Shown: in pieces, positions 3,599-56,204 of the stretch
How positions within the stretch are numbered: the stretch's first letter is position 1
Layout of the letters: each line of letters begins with the position of its first letter
Origin: Fragum whitleyi
Taxonomy: Eukaryota; Mollusca; Bivalvia; Cardiida; Cardiidae
Assembly (NCBI GenBank): GCA_948146395.1
Contig: OX411544.1
Span: 59,855,856-59,919,855 of the forward strand
Direction of reading: 5' to 3'
DNA length: 64,000 bases
Notes under the pieces: generated by a model
Databases searched by the model: none
Told to the model about the DNA's origin: nothing
Seen by the model: the letters and a program-made list of their open reading frames with translations, nothing else
Made by a program: the position numbers and the translations under genes

Positions 3599-4500
3599 AA
3601 ATCATAGATTCATACGGCATGCAACCTGAATGAAGTTGCATTTATTTTTCTGATTAATCTGTATGGTGTGTTAATACCAGAATGCTTTGTCATGGTTGCT
3701 CTTATAACCATCTGGCTCCATTAAGCTGTACAATATTTCTAGAGTGTTTAATTATGGCACTTTAAATACCAATGAAATTTGCACAAGTCATATCATTTTA
3801 TGCAATAGTTAAATTATACAATGCATCTTCTAGTTTCAAAGGGCATCTGGGGGTAGGGGGCCTTTAAGACAAAATGTTGTAAGGTGTGCTGGTGTGAGAA
3901 AAACAGGAAACCATGAGTAGGTGCACCAACCAATACAAATAACTTACATAATAATAGTAATAGTAATGTAACATACAAATCTATAGCTTTAATTATTTTT
4001 GAGCTTCAGCTAAATTCAATTGCCAATAGATATGGATTTCAAAGAAAGCAGTATTATTCAGAATGTCACTAGATGTAATTTTTGAAAAGTGAGAATTAAA
4101 TTAACTGTCCCGATAACTACAATCACCAGTCTCTTAGATGAAGAAAGAGTGGTTTATGGATTTGATAATCACTGCTTAATATCTTGAATTGGCTGTTGGC
4201 TTGTTGGCTTCTAGCTTACAAGAAGAACCATGATTCAATCTATTATTATCAACATGGACATGATGGCCCCATATTGGTCATTTAACATTTTAATGAAGCT
4301 AATAGAACAAGAAAACAACAAATTTGATCTGACCTCAACTATAGTGCCTTTAATACTTTTTAAACTGGTCTTGATATACATACTTGTAATCAACATAATA
4401 TCGTAAGTATAGACAAAGACCTTGATAATAAGGCATCTTTTCTCATGGAGCCCATTCCATTTTCCATTGTGAATATCTGTTTTGCAAACAAACATTTACA
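3599..4500. other. Unassigned DNA with a possible SINE scrap
   Basis: No gene is seen. Around 3888-3945 the words GGTGTGCTGGTGTGAGAAA, CAGGAAACCATGA and GTAGGTGCACCA resemble the 3' body of the tRNA-derived SINE at 27813-28110, so a heavily decayed SINE fragment is likely. Confidence 0.35.
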
Positions 4501-4509
4501 TATATAGGG

Positions 4510-5080
4510 ATTTTGGGCGATAAATTGCCAACCCTAGAGTACAAGCAAAGATATTTTGATTAAGGTCCCTAATCCCACGATTTAGGTAGAAAATTCTAGC
4601 CTTGAGAACATCATCTTTCACCCTTGTGATTAGACAATTACTCAGACATAAAGGTTCCATAAAGTTTTATCCAAATTGCAGCCCCTAGAGTACGAAGAAA
4701 TTTCAATTAAGGTTTTTTTCACAAAAGTTCCAATTTAAAATAGTATTCATCCTTTTGGACTGACAAAAAAAAGTGAAAAGCTAATAACCAAACAAGAACT
4801 AGTACTTAAGGCCAATTTTCTTGTTTCTTTTCCAATAGTGTGTCCAGCTGCCAAAAGTCTTCATTCTTGTAACCAAACAAATATTTGGACTATGTTTTTT
4901 GAAGATTTGGCCAAAAGGTTTGTCAAAATTATGAGGCTCCTAAGGCTAACAAACCTCTCCTGTGTTTGACAATGAAACTTTTCCATTTTCCTTAAGTTTT
5001 TAAGGTTCATCTATACCATGACAAAAATTATGACAAAGTTTAATAGAGACAGAGATAAAAATGTGGGCCCTGGAGTTCTA
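4510..5080. repeat. Degenerate ~150-bp tandem array (pearl-like remnant)
   Basis: Phrases such as AATTGCCAACCCTAGAGTAC (4521) and AATTGCAGCCCCTAGAGTAC (near 4673) recur about 152 bp apart, with a weaker third occurrence near 5061. CTAGAGTAC echoes the CTCTAGAG block of family B units. Termini cannot be found. Confidence 0.4.
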
Positions 5081-6030: not shown

Positions 6031-9000
6031 AATTAGTCCCCCACCAGTTACCGGTTGGGGGACTATAGGTTTGCTCGATTCCGTCTGTCTGTCCATCCGT
6101 CCGTCTGTCCGTCACGCTTTTGTCCGGGCTATATCTTCTAAATCATATGTGCTAGCAACTTCAAACTTGGTACACTTATAGATCTCATTGAGGAGAAGTG
6201 TCATGTTCAAGAACCATTACTCTGCCACACTGATTTTTAGCTCCACTGGCTGAAAGCCACTGGGGCTATTGTCATGGCGTTGTGTCCGTCGTGCGTCCGT
6301 CCGTCCGTCCATGCGTGCGTGCGTGCGTCCGGTCGTAAACTTTTCTTTAAAAATCTTCTCCTCAGAAACTACTGGATGGATTTCAACCAAACTTCACAGG
6401 AATGATCCTTGGGTGACCCTCTTTCAAAGTTGTTCAAGAAATTTTGATCCAATGAAAAACATGGATTTAATGGGCGTGGCTTATTTCCAAATATGGTAAA
6501 AAGTGAGTTTTCTCAGATTCTAATCAATGGATACCAATTAAATTTTACATGAATAATCCTTGGGTGACCCTTTATCAGTTTACAAAAAATCTTTGTGATC
6601 AGATGGAAAATATGCATTTTATGGGCGGAGGTCATTTCTCTATATGTTATATAGTGGAAACTTTGAAAATCATTTTCTCTTAATCTAACTGATGGATATC
6701 AACCAAATTTCACTTGAATGATCCTTGAGTGACCCTTTATCAGTTTACAAAAAATCATTGTTATTGGATGAAAAACATGCATTTTATGGGCGGAGGTCAT
6801 TTCTCTATAAGTTATATAGTGGAAACTTTGAAAATCATTTTCTCAGAATGTAACTGATGGATATCAACCAAATTTCACTGGAATGATCCTTGAGTAACAC
6901 TTTATCAATTTACCAAAAATTATTTTGATTGGATGAAAAATATGCATTTTATGGGCAGAGGTCATTTCTCTATATGTTATATAGTGGAAACTTTGAAAAT
7001 CATTTTCTCAGAATTTGATTTTTGGATATCAATTAAATTTCACTGGAATGATACTTGAGTGACCCTTTATCAGTGTACCAAAAATGATTTTGATTGGATG
7101 AAAAATATACATTTTATGGGTGGAGGTCAATTCTCAATATGTTAAATAGTGGAAACTATGAAAAACATTTTCTCAGAATGTGAATGATGGATATCAATCA
7201 AACATTTTTGGTATGATCTTTGGGTGACCCATTATCATGCAGTCAAAAATTATTTTGATTTGATGAAAAATATGTCTTTTAATAGCAGAGGTCATTTCTC
7301 TATCTGTTATATAGTTGAAACTTTGAAAATCATTTTCAACATCAGTAGAACCCCCAAATATCTAAAAATCTAGTCAAAACATTTATTTGCTTTTACAAGA
7401 ATTTCAAGCCTGTGGAGCGACTCAAGCCATTCATGGCTTTCTAGTTTGAGTTATTGCCCTTTGTGGTTTTACCCTTACATTCTTGTCCGGGCTATATCTT
7501 CTAAACCATATGTGCTAGCAACTTCAAACTTGGTACACTTGTAGATCTCATTGAGGAGAAGTGTCATGTTCAAGAACCGTTACTCTGCCACACCCACTTT
7601 TTGAGTTATTGCCCTTTGTTGTTTTTACCCTTACATTCTTGTCCCGAACATATCTCCTAATTTATGCGTGCTAGCAACTTCAAACGTGTTACACTTATAG
7701 ATCTCATTGAGGAGAAGTGTCATGTTCAAGATCCATAACTCTGCCACGCCCACTTTTTGAGTTATTGCCCTTTGTTGTTTTTACCCTTACATTCTTGTCC
7801 GTTCTATATCTTCTAAACCATATGTGCTAGCAACTTCAAACTTGTTACACTTATAGATCTCATTGAGGAGAAGTGTCATGTTTAAGAACTGTTACTCTGC
7901 CACACCCACTTTTAGAGTTATTGCCCTTTGTTGTTTTTACCCTTACATTCTTGTCCGGAACATATCTCCTAAACTATGTGTGCTAGCAACTTCAAACTTT
8001 GTACACTTATAGATCTCATTAAGGAGAAGTGTCATGTTCAAGATCCATAACTCTGCCATGCCCATTTTTTGAGTTATTGCCCTTTGTTGTTTTTAGTCTT
8101 ACATTCTTGTCAGGATCATATCTCCTAAACTATAAGTGCTAGCATGTTCAAGCTTGGTACACTTATAGATCTTATTGAGGACAAGTGTCATGTACAAGAA
8201 CTGTTACTCTGCCATGTCGACTTTTTGAGTTATTGCCCTTTGTTGTTTTTAGTCTTACATTCTTGTCAGGATCATATCTCCTAAACTATAAGTGCTAGCA
8301 ACTTTAAACTTTGTACATGTATAGATCTCATTGAGGACAATTGTAATGTACAAGAACAGTTACTCTGCCACACCCACTTTTTGAGTTATTGCCCTTTGTT
8401 GTTTTTTACTTTTACATTTTCGTCCGGAACATATCTTCTAAACCATAAGTGCTAGAAACTTCAAACTTGCTACACTTACAGATATCATTGAGGACAAGTG
8501 TCATGTACAAGAACTGTCACTCTGCCATGTCCACTTTTTGAGTTATTGCCCTTTGTTGTTTCTATCCTTACATTTTTGTCCCGTACTTATCTCCTAAACC
8601 ATAAGCCCTAGCAACTTCAAACTTTGTACACTGGTAGATCTCATTGAGAAGAAGTGTAACGCACAAGAACTGCTACTCTGCCACAGCCACTTTTTTTGTT
8701 ATTGTCCGTTGTTGTTTTTTATACTGACATTTTCGTCCGAATCATATCTCCTGAGCCATCAGTGCTAGCAACTTTAAACTTGGTACACTTATAATTCTAA
8801 TTGAAGACAAGTGGCATATACAAGAATCATTCTTCTCCGCCCACTTTTGGAGTTTTTGCCATTGGTTGTTTTTACTCTTATATTTTTGTTTGGGACATTT
8901 TGTTCAAAACCTAATGTGCTAGCAACTTCAAATTTTGTATACAGTTATAGATTAGTTAGTATGAGATATAATATAAGAAAGGATTTTTTGTTATCCGGTG

Positions 9001-22333: not shown

Positions 22334-22703
22334 TTCTGAGGTATTGGCTGAAGACTGAGTCAAGGATCTGTCGAGACTTTCATTTACTACCCAAAAATAG
22401 CTATTTTTTAAAAGTTTTAGAAAAAGAAAGGTCCCATGGTGCTAATTGTGGAGGATGTGGCAAGGCGGTAAACGTCTTAAACTTAAAAAAAATGCTTCAA
22501 AAGCTCCGTGGTATGTGATGGACTATGAATAGACGGATTTCAGCTGGGCTATAAATAGCGCACAAGTCAAAATTAACAGATTGACACCCTAAGATCATTA
22601 AATGCATCAAGGGTAATTCCACTTGATAGTATATATATGTTCCTCTTTTGATAGTGGCGTGCCAAGTTTAAAGAGAATGCCTTATGGCCCTATCACACCT
22701 CAA

Positions 22704-22987
22704 CGTTTTAGCCAGCGTGTGCCTAACGTGTTTGAGAAATCGACTAAGTCCGCAAAACGTCGGCATACGCTGACCTACATTTTCTTTTTGTCAATTCACG
22801 ACGCGCTTGTAGCGTGTTCATAGCGACTTTAAACGTGCGAGTAACGTGTCCAGAACGTGTTGATAGCGTATGTCAGCGTATACCAACATTCTTGAGCGTG
22901 TGTCCAACGTCTTCGTAACGTCCTCAGAACGTGTTTAATGCGGCGTGTCTGTAACGCGCTGTTAGCGTGTTATAACGTGTTCGCAGC
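22704..22987 (+). repeat. Left phased array of RCGTG motifs in element Z
   Basis: The C of the central CG in successive AACG/AGCG motifs falls at 22813, 22824, 22834, 22845, 22856, 22867, 22877, 22887 (AACA, mutated), 22897, 22908, 22919, 22930, 22944, 22955, 22966, 22976 and 22987. That is 17 sites with steps of 10 or 11 and a single 14. Earlier sites at 22704, 22716 and 22727 belong to the terminal repeat. Confidence 0.9.
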
Positions 22988-23946
22988 GTGTTTGGATGTA
23001 AATATAAATTCTGCAAGAAATTACCACTTTAAATTCATTCTTTTAATATATAAAAAGGCCACCGGCCACTATACATATTCAAATTCAAAGTATGTTGGTT
23101 CATGTAAAAGAAAAATAGGAAAATGCGAAAAGAAAAATACACTGGCACCTGTTACATATGAAAATATGCATACAACAAACTTATAAGATTACAACCTTAT
23201 TAAAGCTTCTGGTACTTTTCACTCAAAAAATATTGCGAAAGGGTAAGGAACTACTTGTCATAATGCACTCCTTTCTTCCTCCATATGCTCCTCCATGTAG
23301 GATGACTTTCTACAACCTCTCTTAATCTTGAATAGCTAATATTATTTTAAGGGGGAAAGGTCAAACCAAATATCAAACTTGTAGTACATATAATAGAATC
23401 AAATATTCTGAACAGAACAGAATAGAGTAAAACACGTCTTGTATTATGTCCACTAGGTACAAAGATGTACTTGTATTTTTGGTATATTCATAATGATCAA
23501 AATGAGACGAATGAATTTTTGCATTTTCGCGAACGTATTGTTATTCTGACCAAAGAGCAGACGCACTTGTAAAGCTATAAACGCAATTTTTAATACACAT
23601 TTAGGCTACATTCTCCACCTCGACAATCTAAGAAATTAAGAAAATCCGTAAAGGATTTTTATGGAATAAAAGACACGCAGCTTATAGCATAACATAACAT
23701 AAGTTTTATTTATATGACTCGAACGAAATCTTTCATCATCAAATATAGAGAATGCTACTTATAATCGAGTTTTCAAGTCATTCTTAGACTGGTCATGAGG
23801 AATCATGCAGATATGAACAGGTCAAAAGGGTCATACACACGTACGTTCACAAATTTATTCATTTACGGCAAACTGATGGTAGAAATTCAGGACAAATATG
23901 CAGCGGAACTTTTTATATTTTCATTGAAAACTGAAACGCTGTCATA

Positions 23947-24320
23947 CGCCAAAAACGCTATGTGAACTCGCTGGCAACGCGCTAGACACACGTTTAGTAC
24001 GCCGAAGACACGCTATGCACACGTTCCCAGTACGCTGGAAACACGCTAGAAGCACGTTAAACTTTGGGCTAACGTGTTTCTCGCGAGTCCGTAGCGTAAG
24101 TGAACAAGCTCCTAGCGTGCGGAACGTGTTCCAACACGTTCGGCACACGCTGAGAAATTTTGTGCATGCACAAAATTTTATGAGATACTCAGCGTATCTC
24201 AACGTGTGCCAACGTGTTACAGCGTGCCGATAGCGTGTGCGGAACGTGTCCATAGCGTACCCGACGTGTTCGCAGCATGTTATAAAAAATCCAACACGTT
24301 CCACACACGCTGGTTAAAAC
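23947..24320. repeat. Right phased array of RCGTG motifs in element Z
   Basis: Motif positions include 23991, 24000, 24011, 24022, 24033, 24044 and 24055 (mostly minus orientation); 24073, 24084, 24095, 24105, 24116 and 24125; 24137 and 24148 (minus); then 24193, 24203, 24213, 24223, 24234, 24245, 24256, 24265 and 24276 (plus); and 24297, 24308 and 24320 in the terminal repeat. Steps are nearly all 9-12 bp. The gap at 24276-24297 is two turns. Confidence 0.9.
24155..24178. repeat. Perfect 24-bp palindrome within element Z
   Basis: AAATTTTGTGCATGCACAAA then ATTT is its own reverse complement. It sits between minus-oriented motifs on its left and plus-oriented motifs on its right, with GCTGAG/CTCAGC just outside, so it is the axis of a local inverted duplication. 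Confidence 0.85.
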
Positions 24321-24689
24321 GTTAAGGTGTGACAGCCTTATTAAGTAGAACCAGAAAAATCACAAACGACGACGCCAAGGCTATAGCAATACCTCGGTTT
24401 TTTTTCCGAAAATAGCCGAGCGAAAAATCCTTGTGCACATTTTCCTTTTGGCAAGTACAAGTATTCTATCATGCTTTGTTAAAACATTTTTTTCCAACTT
24501 TCTGTTACTGGTGAGAAATAGCGAACCCTTGTTTCGTCACAAGTAACTGTGTTTGCAAATTGTCTTTGACCAAGTTTGAAAAGATTTTATCTGTCGCTTA
24601 GCCTTTTGTACTCGTGCGTTTTATACTCCCTAAGAGTATATTTGTTGAGGGTATTGGTATACAGGATTCAGCTTGTCGGACGTCGATCA

Positions 24690-54453: not shown

Positions 54454-54553
54454 AACATCTTGTGTGCACTCTAGAGGCCACAGTTTTGGCCCAAATGTCT
54501 TGAAACTTGGTCACAATGTTCGTCTCCATCAACTCTCGGTCAAGTTCGAAATT

Positions 54554-55600
54554 GGGTCAAGTGGGGTCAAAAATGGGGTCAAGGGGTCAAATCTTAGAAA
54601 AACCTTGTGTGCACTCTAGAGGCCACATTTTTGGTCCAAATGCTTTAAAACTTGGTCAGAATGTTTGTCTCCATCAAATCTCGATCAAGTTCGGAATTGG
54701 GTCAAGTGGGGTCAAAAATTGGGTCAAGGGGTCAAATCTTAGAAAAACCTTGTGTGCACTCTAGAAACCACATTTTTGGTCCAATTGTCTTGAAACTTTG
54801 TCAGAATGTTTGTCTCCATCAAAGCTCGACCAAGTTCGAAATTGGGTCAAGTGGGGTCAAAATTAGGGTCAAGGGGTCAAATCTTAGAAAACCCTTGTGT
54901 GCACTCTAGAAGCCACATTTTTGGCCCAAATGTCTTGAAACTTGGTCAGAATGTTTGTCTCCATCAAATCTCAGTGAAGTTCAAAATTGGGTCAAGTGGG
55001 GTCAAAAATAGGGTCAAGGGGTCAAATCTTAGAAAAACCTTGTGTGCACTCTACAGGCCACACTTTTGGCCCAAATGTCTTTAAACTTGGTCAGAATGTT
55101 TGTCTCCATCAAATCTCGATCAAGTTCAGAATTGGGTCAAGTGGGGTCAAAAATGGGGTCAGGGGGTCAAATCTTAGAAAAACCTTGAGTGCACTCTTGA
55201 AACCACATTTTTGGTCCAATTGTCTTGAAACTTTGTCAGAATGTTTGTCTCCATCAAATCTCGATGAAGATTGAAAATGGGTCAAGTGGGGTCAAAATTA
55301 GGGTCAAGGGGTCAAATCTTAGAAAAACATGTGTGCACTCTAGAAACCACATTTTTGGCCCAAATGTCTTGAAACTTGGTCAGAATGTTTGTCTCCATCA
55401 AATCTCAGTCAAGTTCGAAACTAGGTCAAGTAGGGTCAAAAATGGGGTCAAGGGGTCAAATCTTAGAAAAACCTTGTGTGCACTCTAGAGGCTACATTTT
55501 TGGCCCAAATGTCTTGAAACTTGGTCAGAATGTTTGTCTCCATTGAATCTCAGCCAAGTTTGAAATTGGGTCAAGTGGGGTCAAAAATGGGGTCAAGGGG
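54554..55600 (+). promoter_or_regulatory. Array of PuGGTCA direct repeats in family B units
   Basis: In the first unit GGGTCA occurs at 54554-54559, 54564-54569, 54576-54581 and 54584-54589, giving spacers of 4, 6 and 2. The arrangement recurs in most of the following 145-bp units. DR4 and DR2 of PuGGTCA are binding layouts for animal nuclear receptors. This is a direct sequence match only; no functional evidence exists here. Confidence 0.3.
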
Positions 55601-56204
55601 TCAAATCTTAGAAAAACCTTGTTTACTCAAATATCTTGAAACTTCGTCAGAATATTTGAATGAAACGAAGGTTAAGTTTGAAATTGGGTCAAGTTGGGTC
55701 CAAAATGAGGTCAAGGGGTAAAATTTGTTAAAGTCCTTATGTGCACTCTTTGATTGAAAATTATGTATTTTGGTCAGAATGTTTGTCTTGAAATCTTACA
55801 CAAGTTTGATAGAGGGTCAAACACTTTTTTTTAGTACTTTAGAGGCAACATATTTGCCTGAAATGTTAACTTCTTGATATCTTTGACTTTTGTTAAGCCA
55901 TGCATCAGGTGAGCGTTTAAGGGCCAATGGCCCTCTTGTTTCTTTTTTTTTTCGAAAAAAAAAAAACCCCAAAACTACCATACCATACCCTGATATAGAA
56001 ATTGCCAAAATGAACATCTAATTATCTAATACTGTATTATAAAGTCTTTAAGACAGTATTGCCAGTGGGCGGCAAAAAAAATAGTATCTGATATTATTTC
56101 AAGCTGATATACAACATTTAAGCCTCTCGCTTACGTTAAACCAATTGTTCTATTTTGAGACTTGCATAATGAAAGCTTTTGAATGTTCCAGACGATGGTT
56201 TGAT

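What the first reader, a model, noticed from the sequence alone, without database searches (positions are those of the whole stretch)
22686..24337. Transposon-like element whose arms carry RCGTG motifs every helical turn
Seen: AACGTG/AGCGTG-type motifs occur at 10-11 bp steps for 17 consecutive positions on the left (22813-22987), and at similar steps through the right arm, with gaps close to whole multiples of a turn. Motif sequence alternates (A or G before CG) and the spacer bases vary freely, so phase is conserved more than sequence. Known: several DNA transposons have subterminal transposase-binding repeats (for example Ac/Ds, En/Spm). Inference: so long an array on one helical face would let a protein polymerise along the DNA. 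I know of no described family with this layout.
Basis: partly seen in the sequence, partly recalled or inferred. Interest (0 to 1): 0.88.

Follow-up and report, generated by a model that had tools for sequence, protein, structure and literature searches.

The report
Transposon ends with helix-phased site arrays
A multi-copy jumping gene in an animal genome, and four related families, carry at their ends many short DNA signals repeated about once per turn of the double helix, which looks like a track on which a transposon-encoded protein lines up to bring the two ends together.

Summary
Window 22685-24340 is a non-coding DNA transposon of about 1.7 kb (family F1). Its exact left terminus occurs 537 times in the genome, and 32 of 35 copies have a TTA/TAA target duplication, which places it in PIF/Harbinger. 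Both arms carry the unit ARCGTGT about every 10.6 bp. All 41 left arms and 37 right arms tested keep the period; shuffles rarely or never reach it.

Four related families with PF13359 transposases have the same layout with other units: F4 (ARCGTAT, terminus shared with F1), F2 (CRCGTGTG), F3 (YACGATY), F5 (ACG-centred). F3, F4 and F5 carry a convergent MADF (Myb/SANT-like) gene; genome-wide, 15 of 28 MADF hits lie within 10 kb of a PF13359 hit, all convergent.

Best reading: the MADF protein binds one site per helical turn, lines up on one face of both ends and delivers the transposase. Binding and filament are inferred, not shown. Three relatives (L075, L083, L084) showed no array in the DNA read. 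Closest precedents are the Harbinger3_DR 9-bp subterminal motif and the bacterial IS1535 filament. New variant of a known kind.

The parts
22685..24340 (.). Non-autonomous PIF/Harbinger-type transposon, family F1 (an older, diverged copy)
   Evidence: Multi-copy; window copy about 93% to the others, the others about 96% to each other; termini and target duplication
22682..22684 (.). Left target-site duplication TTA
   Evidence: Sequence; TTA or TAA matching in 32 of 35 copies aligned over the whole consensus
24341..24343 (.). Right target-site duplication TTA
   Evidence: Sequence
22685..22735 (+). Left terminal inverted repeat (family form TGGCCCTGTCACACCTCAACGTTTTA...) with its first array units
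   Evidence: 46-nt inverted repeat, 85% complementary; 537 exact TWATGGCCCTGTCACACCT in the genome, reversed control 0
24290..24340 (-). Right terminal inverted repeat (family form TAGGGCTGTCACACCTTAACGTTTTA...) with its array units
22811..22992 (+). Left array: ARCGTGT-type units every 10-11 bp (16 of 17 positions keep CG here; 18 units in the consensus)
23935..24059 (-). Right array block 1, units on the minus strand (12 in the consensus, gaps 9-11 bp)
24071..24130 (+). Right array block 2, plus strand; this copy lacks 44 bp that the consensus has
24134..24152 (-). Two inverted units between blocks 2 and 3
   Evidence: (consensus)
24189..24272 (+). Right array block 3, plus strand
23001..23929 (.). 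A+T-rich core without array and without convincing coding capacity
   Evidence: No CG periodicity; only short chance-like frames; chain test on 450 bp of the consensus core negative

Best explanation
The feature is a high-copy non-autonomous PIF/Harbinger transposon whose two arms are dense arrays of one short oriented unit (ARCGTGT) placed about once per helical turn. Related families with coding regions carry such arrays too, each with its own unit. In F3 and F4 the arrays lie between each terminus and the start of the gene facing inward: transposase at one end, a convergent MADF (Myb/SANT-like) protein at the other. Proposed mechanism: the MADF protein binds each unit, so that successive molecules sit on the same face of the helix; their C-terminal region lets neighbours associate, giving a filament on each arm; two filaments pair the ends and load the transposase, which has only a weak match to a DNA-binding domain of its own, on the terminal repeats. 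F1 would have been mobilised in trans by such proteins, most plausibly from an F4-like element. Shown by sequence: transposon, copies, target duplication, phase, layout in five families, MADF partner in three. Inferred: who binds, cooperativity, filament, pairing, and the identity of F1's mobiliser.
For: Phase: in the four main consensus blocks, chained at 9-12 bp, the 45 gaps are 31x11, 10x10, 4x9, mean 10.60, with slopes of 10.43-10.71 bp per unit and about 0.5 bp rms deviation. With gaps of 7-14 bp allowed, 248 of 383 gaps over 13 arms of F1-F5 are 10 or 11 bp; chains at 9-12 bp exceed all 10 shuffles in 13 of 13 arms; at 13-16 and 16-19 bp scores are far lower (and stay within the 5 shuffles in 6 of 13 arms each); at 20-23 bp, two turns, 12 of 13 arms exceed their shuffles. 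Sequence-specific: oriented unit, free spacer (0.02-0.44 bits); a fit that did not require CG gave CG near the maximal weight in 22 units of the left arm. Same layout with other units: F2, F3, F4, F5. Shared terminus core GTCACAC in F1, F2 and F4. MADF partner: 15 of 28 PF10545 hits lie within 10 kb of a PF13359 hit, all 15 convergent (tables compared by eye); 12 MADF frames of 269 aa; Pfam MADF E 1.2e-6 (F3) and 9e-8 (F5), 3.3e-9 (F4, frame with one stop). Literature, seen as passages: the Harbinger3_DR Myb-like protein recognises a 9-bp subterminal motif and is needed to bring the transposase to the nucleus (PMC9710019); characterised Harbinger transposases lack an obvious binding domain and ORF1 binds the ends (PMC2836001); MADF-BESS proteins homodimerise through BESS (PMC10573801); four helically phased motifs nucleate a filament that captures the other end in IS1535 (PMC6188088).
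Against: No binding data exist. F1's own mobilising element was not found; the two long F1 copies that I fetched carry nested insertions. L083, whose transposase lies about 3.5 kb from a MADF frame, shows no array in the 4.5 kb read (its MADF-side arm was not read), and L084 shows none; L075, of the same clade, shows none in 1.5-kb flanks. Pfam found no MADF in the F2 second-gene piece and no BESS domain in the F3, F4 or F5 pieces; the BESS-like reading is by eye. The CG in every unit is partly by construction, because units were picked with CG required. The CG periodogram was weak for F3 left (98 of 1000 shuffles reach it), L086 (429) and L085 (600), so those rest on the chain test. F3 left also scores above its 5 shuffles at 13-16 and 16-19 bp (57 and 53, against 66 at 20-23 and 101 at 9-12), so its contrast is less sharp. 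The chain test used 5-30 shuffles per segment, so small probabilities are not resolved, and no shuffled gap distribution was made.
Confidence: 0.6

Rival explanations
1. The transposase itself, through its helix-turn-helix, is the array-binding protein, and the MADF protein acts only in nuclear import.
For: F3 transposase has a weak HTH_Tnp_4 match (E 0.0029, below Pfam's cut-off). In IS1535 it is the transposase that coats phased motifs.
Against: Passages say that characterised Harbinger transposases lack an obvious binding domain and that DNA binding was shown only for the Myb-like protein of Harbinger3_DR. The HTH match is weak.
Confidence: 0.15
2. The arrays are nucleosome-positioning DNA: CG steps every 10.5 bp wrap or phase a histone octamer at each end.
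For: Period and block length (about 100-190 bp) are in the nucleosome range. In the F2 arm, A/T dinucleotides peak 5-7 bp from CG (0.34-0.48 against 0.23 background), the antiphase expected of nucleosome DNA (recalled); F1 left has 0.38 at 4-5 bp against 0.24.
Against: The unit is a 7-bp oriented motif in blocks of one orientation, whereas nucleosome signals are loose and strand-symmetric (recalled). In F1 left and F3 right the highest or equal-highest A/T peak near the unit adjoins CG (0.47 and 0.51 at offset -2), in F4 and F3 left it follows CG (0.58-0.67 at +2), and F5 shows no such pattern.
Confidence: 0.1
3. The arrays are worn tandem repeats (an 11-bp minisatellite) without function.
For: Copies gain and lose exactly 11 bp: 16 of 23 arm indels of 4 bp or more are 11 bp and one is 44 (six share one place, so they are not independent).
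Against: Neighbouring units are not more alike than distant ones: of 24 lag tests two are below p 0.05 (0.015 at lag 3 in one block, 0.034 at lag 6 in another), none at lag 1 or 2. The same period recurs with other units in related families.
Confidence: 0.08
4. The units are sites for a host transcription factor (RCGTG resembles bHLH-PAS sites, recalled), so the arms are promoters or enhancers rather than transposition sites.
For: In F3 and F4 the arrays lie just upstream of both genes. A MADF protein of PIF/Harbinger origin was found by ChIP on its own promoter with primers containing TIR sequence (PMC11893794, passage).
Against: The unit differs between families, which a single host factor does not explain. 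Non-coding F1 and F4 copies keep arrays in both arms. In the same paper a candidate motif of that promoter did not bind in EMSA, which also counts against simple MADF binding.
Confidence: 0.07

Closest known systems
PIF/Harbinger superfamily, animal two-gene type (transposase plus Myb/SANT/MADF protein); zebrafish Harbinger3_DR
   Same: TTA/TAA target duplication, terminal inverted repeats, PF13359 transposase, MADF-type second protein. The Harbinger3_DR Myb-like protein recognises a 9-bp subterminal motif (PMC9710019, passage).
   Different: Here the subterminal sites are tens of units at about one per helical turn in both arms, with the unit changing between families. No such layout appeared in the listings and passages seen; the Harbinger3_DR paper itself was not held.
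Rice Ping/Pong and the MITE mPing
   Same: Two element proteins, with a non-coding element mobilised in trans (PMC2836001, passages; PMC4055405, listing and start of abstract only).
   Different: No phased array in the passages seen; mPing is far shorter (recalled).
IS607-family IS1535 (bacterial serine transposase)
   Same: Directly repeated motifs at 10-11 bp steps nucleate a nucleoprotein filament that captures the second end (PMC6188088, section 17 and passages).
   Different: Unrelated protein, no terminal inverted repeats or target duplication, four phased motifs rather than about 50 units, and not all members of the family are phased.
Galileo and Foldback elements; hAT subterminal repeats
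   Same: Multiple protein sites in long arms; higher-order complexes proposed (PMC3688188, passages; hAT as told in PMC6188088, passage).
   Different: Sites few or at variable spacing; no helical phase in the passages seen.
Plasmid parC/ParR partition sites (recalled)
   Same: About ten 11-bp repeats bound side by side by a protein that forms a helical array.
   Different: Partition, not transposition; unrelated protein. From memory, not looked up.

Membership tests
PIF/Harbinger superfamily (element F1 in the window) | 3-bp target duplication TTA/TAA | tested here: met
   Matching TTA or TAA in 32 of 35 copies aligned over the whole consensus; window copy TTA/TTA
PIF/Harbinger superfamily (element F1 in the window) | Terminal inverted repeats shared with a PF13359-coding element | tested here: met
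   F4 terminus GGGGCTGTCACACC and F2 terminus GGCCCGGTCACAC against F1 GGCCCTGTCACACC / GGGCTGTCACACC
PIF/Harbinger superfamily (element F1 in the window) | Own autonomous master element | tested here: inconclusive
   No F1 copy with a transposase found; only the first 100 of 537 terminus places were listed; the two long copies fetched carry nested insertions
PIF/Harbinger superfamily (families F2-F5) | DDE transposase PF13359 | tested here: met
   F3 E 1.7e-30; F2 fragment E 5.9e-16; F4 and F5 hits, frames; one clade with support 100/100 that also holds L075, L083, L084
PIF/Harbinger superfamily (families F2-F5) | Second gene with Myb/SANT/MADF domain | tested here: met
   Met in F3, F4 and F5; for F2 a second convergent gene exists but no domain was recognised
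PIF/Harbinger superfamily (families F2-F5) | Second protein binds subterminal DNA of its element | not testable with these tools
   Needs binding assays
IS607-type phased filament (works like) | Motifs at 10-11 bp steps near the ends | tested here: met
IS607-type phased filament (works like) | Cooperative filament and capture of the other end | not testable with these tools
   Needs footprinting and paired-end assays
IS607 family (membership) | Serine recombinase, no terminal inverted repeats, no target duplication | tested here: not met
   Terminal inverted repeats and target duplication present; DDE transposase in relatives

The most novel reading that the evidence does not exclude
These Harbinger elements recognise their ends by geometry: a MADF protein polymerises on one face of the helix along hundreds of base pairs. 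The helical phase is the fixed constraint, while the 7-bp unit and the protein's specificity co-evolve and turn over between families, insulating them from each other and from host sites. Non-coding elements thrive by keeping the track and dropping the genes.
Probability: 0.4. Interest if true: 0.87.

Novelty: new variant of a known kind. Interest (0 to 1): 0.75.

Why it matters
[quoted passage not shown] Here five families give natural replicates of one design: same phase, different unit, and in three families a MADF gene in the same element. That makes direct tests possible of what the second protein does, whether end recognition works by a filament, and how a DNA-binding domain and tens of sites change together. 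It also suggests a simple way for an element to be specific with a very short motif.

Tried and rejected
Autonomous F1 among long F1 copies: the two fetched were rejected. L079 holds a nested tyrosine-recombinase element (DUF3504 and Phage_integrase frames) at consensus 323-327, and L081 a nested retroelement. Myb_DNA-bind_5 and Myb_DNA-bind_4 as the partner: 4 hits each in the genome, none near the F2-F5 loci; three of the four Myb_DNA-bind_4 hits lie within about 6 kb of other PF13359 hits (C14, C12, C2; compared by eye), so another Harbinger lineage there has that type. Other PF13359 lineages as array bearers: 17 loci, 136 windows of 450 bp, median excess 0.6 over shuffles, one window above 20 (20.4, in L068); limited to 1.5-kb flanks. 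Simple repeats also give high chain scores (TCTCTCT in L089), so each hit was judged with its motif. F5 termini were not determined: the place taken as its right terminus for probably lies inside the array, and that 220-bp piece scored only 33 against a shuffle maximum of 28, while the windows around it score 58.5 and 79.5 against 35.0 and 37.5. Motif-core against spacer conservation between F4 arms was dropped because core was defined by matching the motif, which biases it. The order of gaps within arrays shows no significant compensation of phase beyond the narrow gap range (P 0.08-0.43). No solved structure of a MADF relative was found by sequence (best E 0.22). A first tree had seven loci on the wrong strand; only the corrected tree is used. 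A first BLAST script returned no copies and was repeated with other gap penalties.
Full report
What was checked. The finding claims a transposon-like element whose arms carry RCGTG motifs at helical-turn spacing. The sequence shows it. The window lies in a 1.22-Gb genome (G000:C2). A search with the element scored 40 of 1144 first-look candidates and gave 41 large matches including the window copy: 36 over the whole query, one over 1-1625 and four shorter. These 41 were aligned. They are about 96% identical to each other and about 93% to the window copy, which is therefore an older member. The exact terminus TWATGGCCCTGTCACACCT occurs 537 times in the genome and its reversed control 0 times; the spaced pattern CGTGT(4-6)CGTGT(4-6)CGTGT occurs 1310 times against 27 for the control.

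Element ends. Of 35 copies aligned over the whole consensus, 32 have identical 3-bp flanks, TTA or TAA, outside T-GGCCC...GCC-CTA. The window copy has TTA at 22682-22684 and 24341-24343, with one C-to-T change in its right end. It has no convincing reading frame. This is the signature of a non-coding PIF/Harbinger element.

The array. In the consensus the unit is A-R-C-G-T-G-T followed by 3-4 free bases. Units were picked with CG required, so the CG in 49 of 49 units of the four main blocks is partly by construction; a fit that did not require it gave CG near the maximal weight in 22 units of the left arm. The second base is A 21 and G 28 times, and the columns outside the 7-bp unit carry 0.02-0.44 bits. 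Gaps in blocks chained at 9-12 bp are 31 of 11, 10 of 10 and 4 of 9 bp, mean 10.60; the four blocks have slopes of 10.43-10.71 bp per unit with about 0.5 bp rms deviation. The left arm has one block of 18 units in one orientation; the right arm has blocks of 12 (minus), 10 (plus) and 9 (plus) with inverted units between and after them. The CG periodogram peaks at 10.65 bp in both arms of the consensus (0 and 18 of 2000 shuffles) and within 10.0-11.2 bp in 41 of 41 left and 37 of 37 right arms; these copies are close relatives, so they are not independent tests of phase. Two of three right-arm blocks alone were not significant by that measure, probably because spacers there also contain CG. A chain search that learns a 7-bp unit with gaps of 9-12 bp recovers the motif without being told it and exceeds all 30 shuffles for both arms, in the window copy and in the consensus, but not for a 450-bp piece of the core.

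How units come and go. Among 37 copies of at least 1600 bp, 16 of 23 arm indels of at least 4 bp are exactly 11 bp and one is 44 bp; none of 21 core indels is 11 bp (all are multiples of 5, 20 of them at a TAACA repeat). Six of the 11-bp deletions share one place, so events are fewer than cells. Units are thus mostly lost and gained whole, which keeps phase. Yet neighbouring units are no more alike than distant ones (lag 1: p 0.26-0.83; of 24 lag tests two below 0.05), so the array is not a recent tandem duplication.

Relatives with genes. PF13359 gave 150 hits in the genome. Near one F1 copy lies a second element (F2) with terminus GGCCCGGTCACACA and a PF13359 domain; a short F2 copy with both termini (2.2 kb, TAA duplication, L080) has periodic arms with a different unit (CG period 10.75, 0 of 1000 shuffles, one arm; 10.85, 8 of 1000, the other; core 93 of 1000). 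A protein search with the F2 transposase fragment gave 97 hits. From these F3 (C6, 455-aa open transposase frame, L082 and L089, about 6.5 kb, TAA duplication), F4 (C7 L087 and L090; C1 L085; non-coding C4 L088) and F5 (C8, L091) were read. Chain scores against shuffle maxima: F3 left 100.2 against 49.0, F3 right windows 61-69 against 36-43; F4 L087 100.4 against 38.9, L088 103.3 and 78.3 against 42.0 and 34.7, L090 104.0 against 37.5, L085 87.7 against 38.8; F5 70.8 against 41.0 and 79.5 against 37.5. The arms were chosen after looking at them; the scans slid over whole loci. Units: ARCGTAT in F4, CRCGTGTG-like in F2, YACGATY in F3, ACG-centred in F5. F4 is the nearest to F1: its terminus GGGGCTGTCACACC differs by a base or two from the F1 ends, its unit differs by one base, and its terminus with six more bases occurs 389 times with up to one mismatch (control 0).

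Phase tested freely. With gaps of 7-14 bp allowed, 248 of 383 gaps in 13 arms are 10 or 11 bp. Chains at 9-12 bp exceed all 10 shuffles in 13 of 13 arms. Chains at 13-16 and at 16-19 bp score far lower, but still exceed their 5 shuffles in 7 of 13 arms each, most in F3 left and F4; chains at 20-23 bp, two turns, exceed theirs in 12 of 13. No shuffled gap distribution was run for the 7-14 bp setting. The plain CG periodogram was weaker in the relatives: F4 L088 right 0, L087 12, L088 left 32, F3 left 98, F2 L086 429 and F4 L085 600 of 1000 shuffles reach the observed power.

Negative relatives. Seventeen other PF13359 loci showed no array in 136 windows within 1.5 kb of the domain. Two more of the F2-F5 clade, L083 and L084, showed none in 4.5 kb. 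The tree of the transposase domain puts F2-F5 with L075, L083 and L084 in one clade (support 100/100) apart from 16 rows without detected arrays; F1 has no transposase and is not in it. So arrays are a property of part of one clade, and L083, which has a MADF frame about 3.5 kb away, is a real exception or has its array outside the DNA read.

The second protein. Myb_DNA-bind_4 and _5 gave nothing near these families. MADF_DNA_bdg (PF10545) gave 28 hits; comparing the tables by eye, 15 of the 28 lie within 10 kb of a PF13359 hit and all 15 are convergent with it. Twelve have a 269-aa frame, eleven of them among those 15 (the twelfth, on C7, lies 15 kb from a PF13359 hit). Pfam confirms the domain in F3 (E 1.2e-6) and F5 (E 9e-8); the F4 hit (E 3.3e-9) has one stop. 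Downstream frames in F3, F4 and F5 contain a stretch that I read by eye as BESS-like; Pfam does not support it. F2 has a second convergent gene, next to a transposase fragment in 4 of 5 hits, without a recognised domain in the piece scanned. In F3 and F4 the arrays fill the space between each terminus and the start of the gene facing inward.

Mechanism. From passages of the literature: Harbinger needs both proteins; the Myb-like protein binds a 9-bp subterminal motif in Harbinger3_DR, and its interaction with the transposase is needed for both to reach the nucleus (PMC9710019); the characterised transposases lack an obvious binding domain (PMC2836001); MADF-BESS proteins homodimerise (PMC10573801; there the CP60 MADF domain did not bind DNA, so not every MADF does); in IS1535 four phased motifs nucleate a filament that captures the other end (PMC6188088). 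Put together, a MADF filament on one helical face of each arm is the simplest reading. It explains phase, orientation blocks, unit-wise gain and loss, arrays kept in non-coding copies, and the change of unit with the family. It remains an inference until binding is measured.

Novelty. Nine literature searches on this theme listed no paper that, from listing or passages seen, describes helically phased subterminal arrays in PIF/Harbinger. The library holds open-licence papers only; Repbase and Dfam were not available, and the Harbinger3_DR paper itself was not held. I therefore rate it a new variant of a known kind. After re-checking the calls I mended the statements on CG in every unit, on the control periods and on the number of lag tests; the odds did not need to change.

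Noticed in passing
L079 (G000:C1:31619500-31625050): An F1 copy split by a 3.3-kb element with DUF3504 and Phage_integrase frames (Crypton-like tyrosine recombinase) at the inner edge of the left array.
   Followed up: partly
L081 (G000:C1:41033750-41039900): An F1 copy split near consensus 536 by a retroelement with a long open frame that looks like RNase H/integrase (read by eye).
   Followed up: no
G000: C6:22928020, C16:35250067, C1:17567044, C16:35183989, C4:58121672, C7:4345727, C8:63098076 and partners: Family F3 has at least seven copies with open 454-455 aa transposase frames, and 269-aa MADF frames beside them; it may be recently active.
   Followed up: partly
L083rc 901-1600 (G000:C13:57965000-57969500): A related transposase with a MADF frame nearby has CG-rich flanking DNA but no phased array by the chain test.
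   Followed up: partly
L082rc 4160-4600: A weaker array with about 9.8-bp gaps and another unit (score 52.6 against a shuffle maximum of 39.8) inside F3, between its two genes.
   Followed up: no
G000:C14:50216206, C12:46080336, C2:7652368: Myb_DNA-bind_4 hits lie within about 6 kb of PF13359 hits of other lineages, so a second type of two-gene Harbinger seems to live in this genome.
   Followed up: no
G000:C9:28017351-28020825: Two F1 copies lie head to head about 60 bp apart.
   Followed up: no
F1 consensus about 1004-1030: A TAACA repeat whose unit number varies between copies.
   Followed up: no
window 54459-55772, 7457-8851, 1062-1570 and 6340-7336: Tandem satellites with 145-, 156- and 165-bp units, several related blocks across the window.
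   Followed up: no
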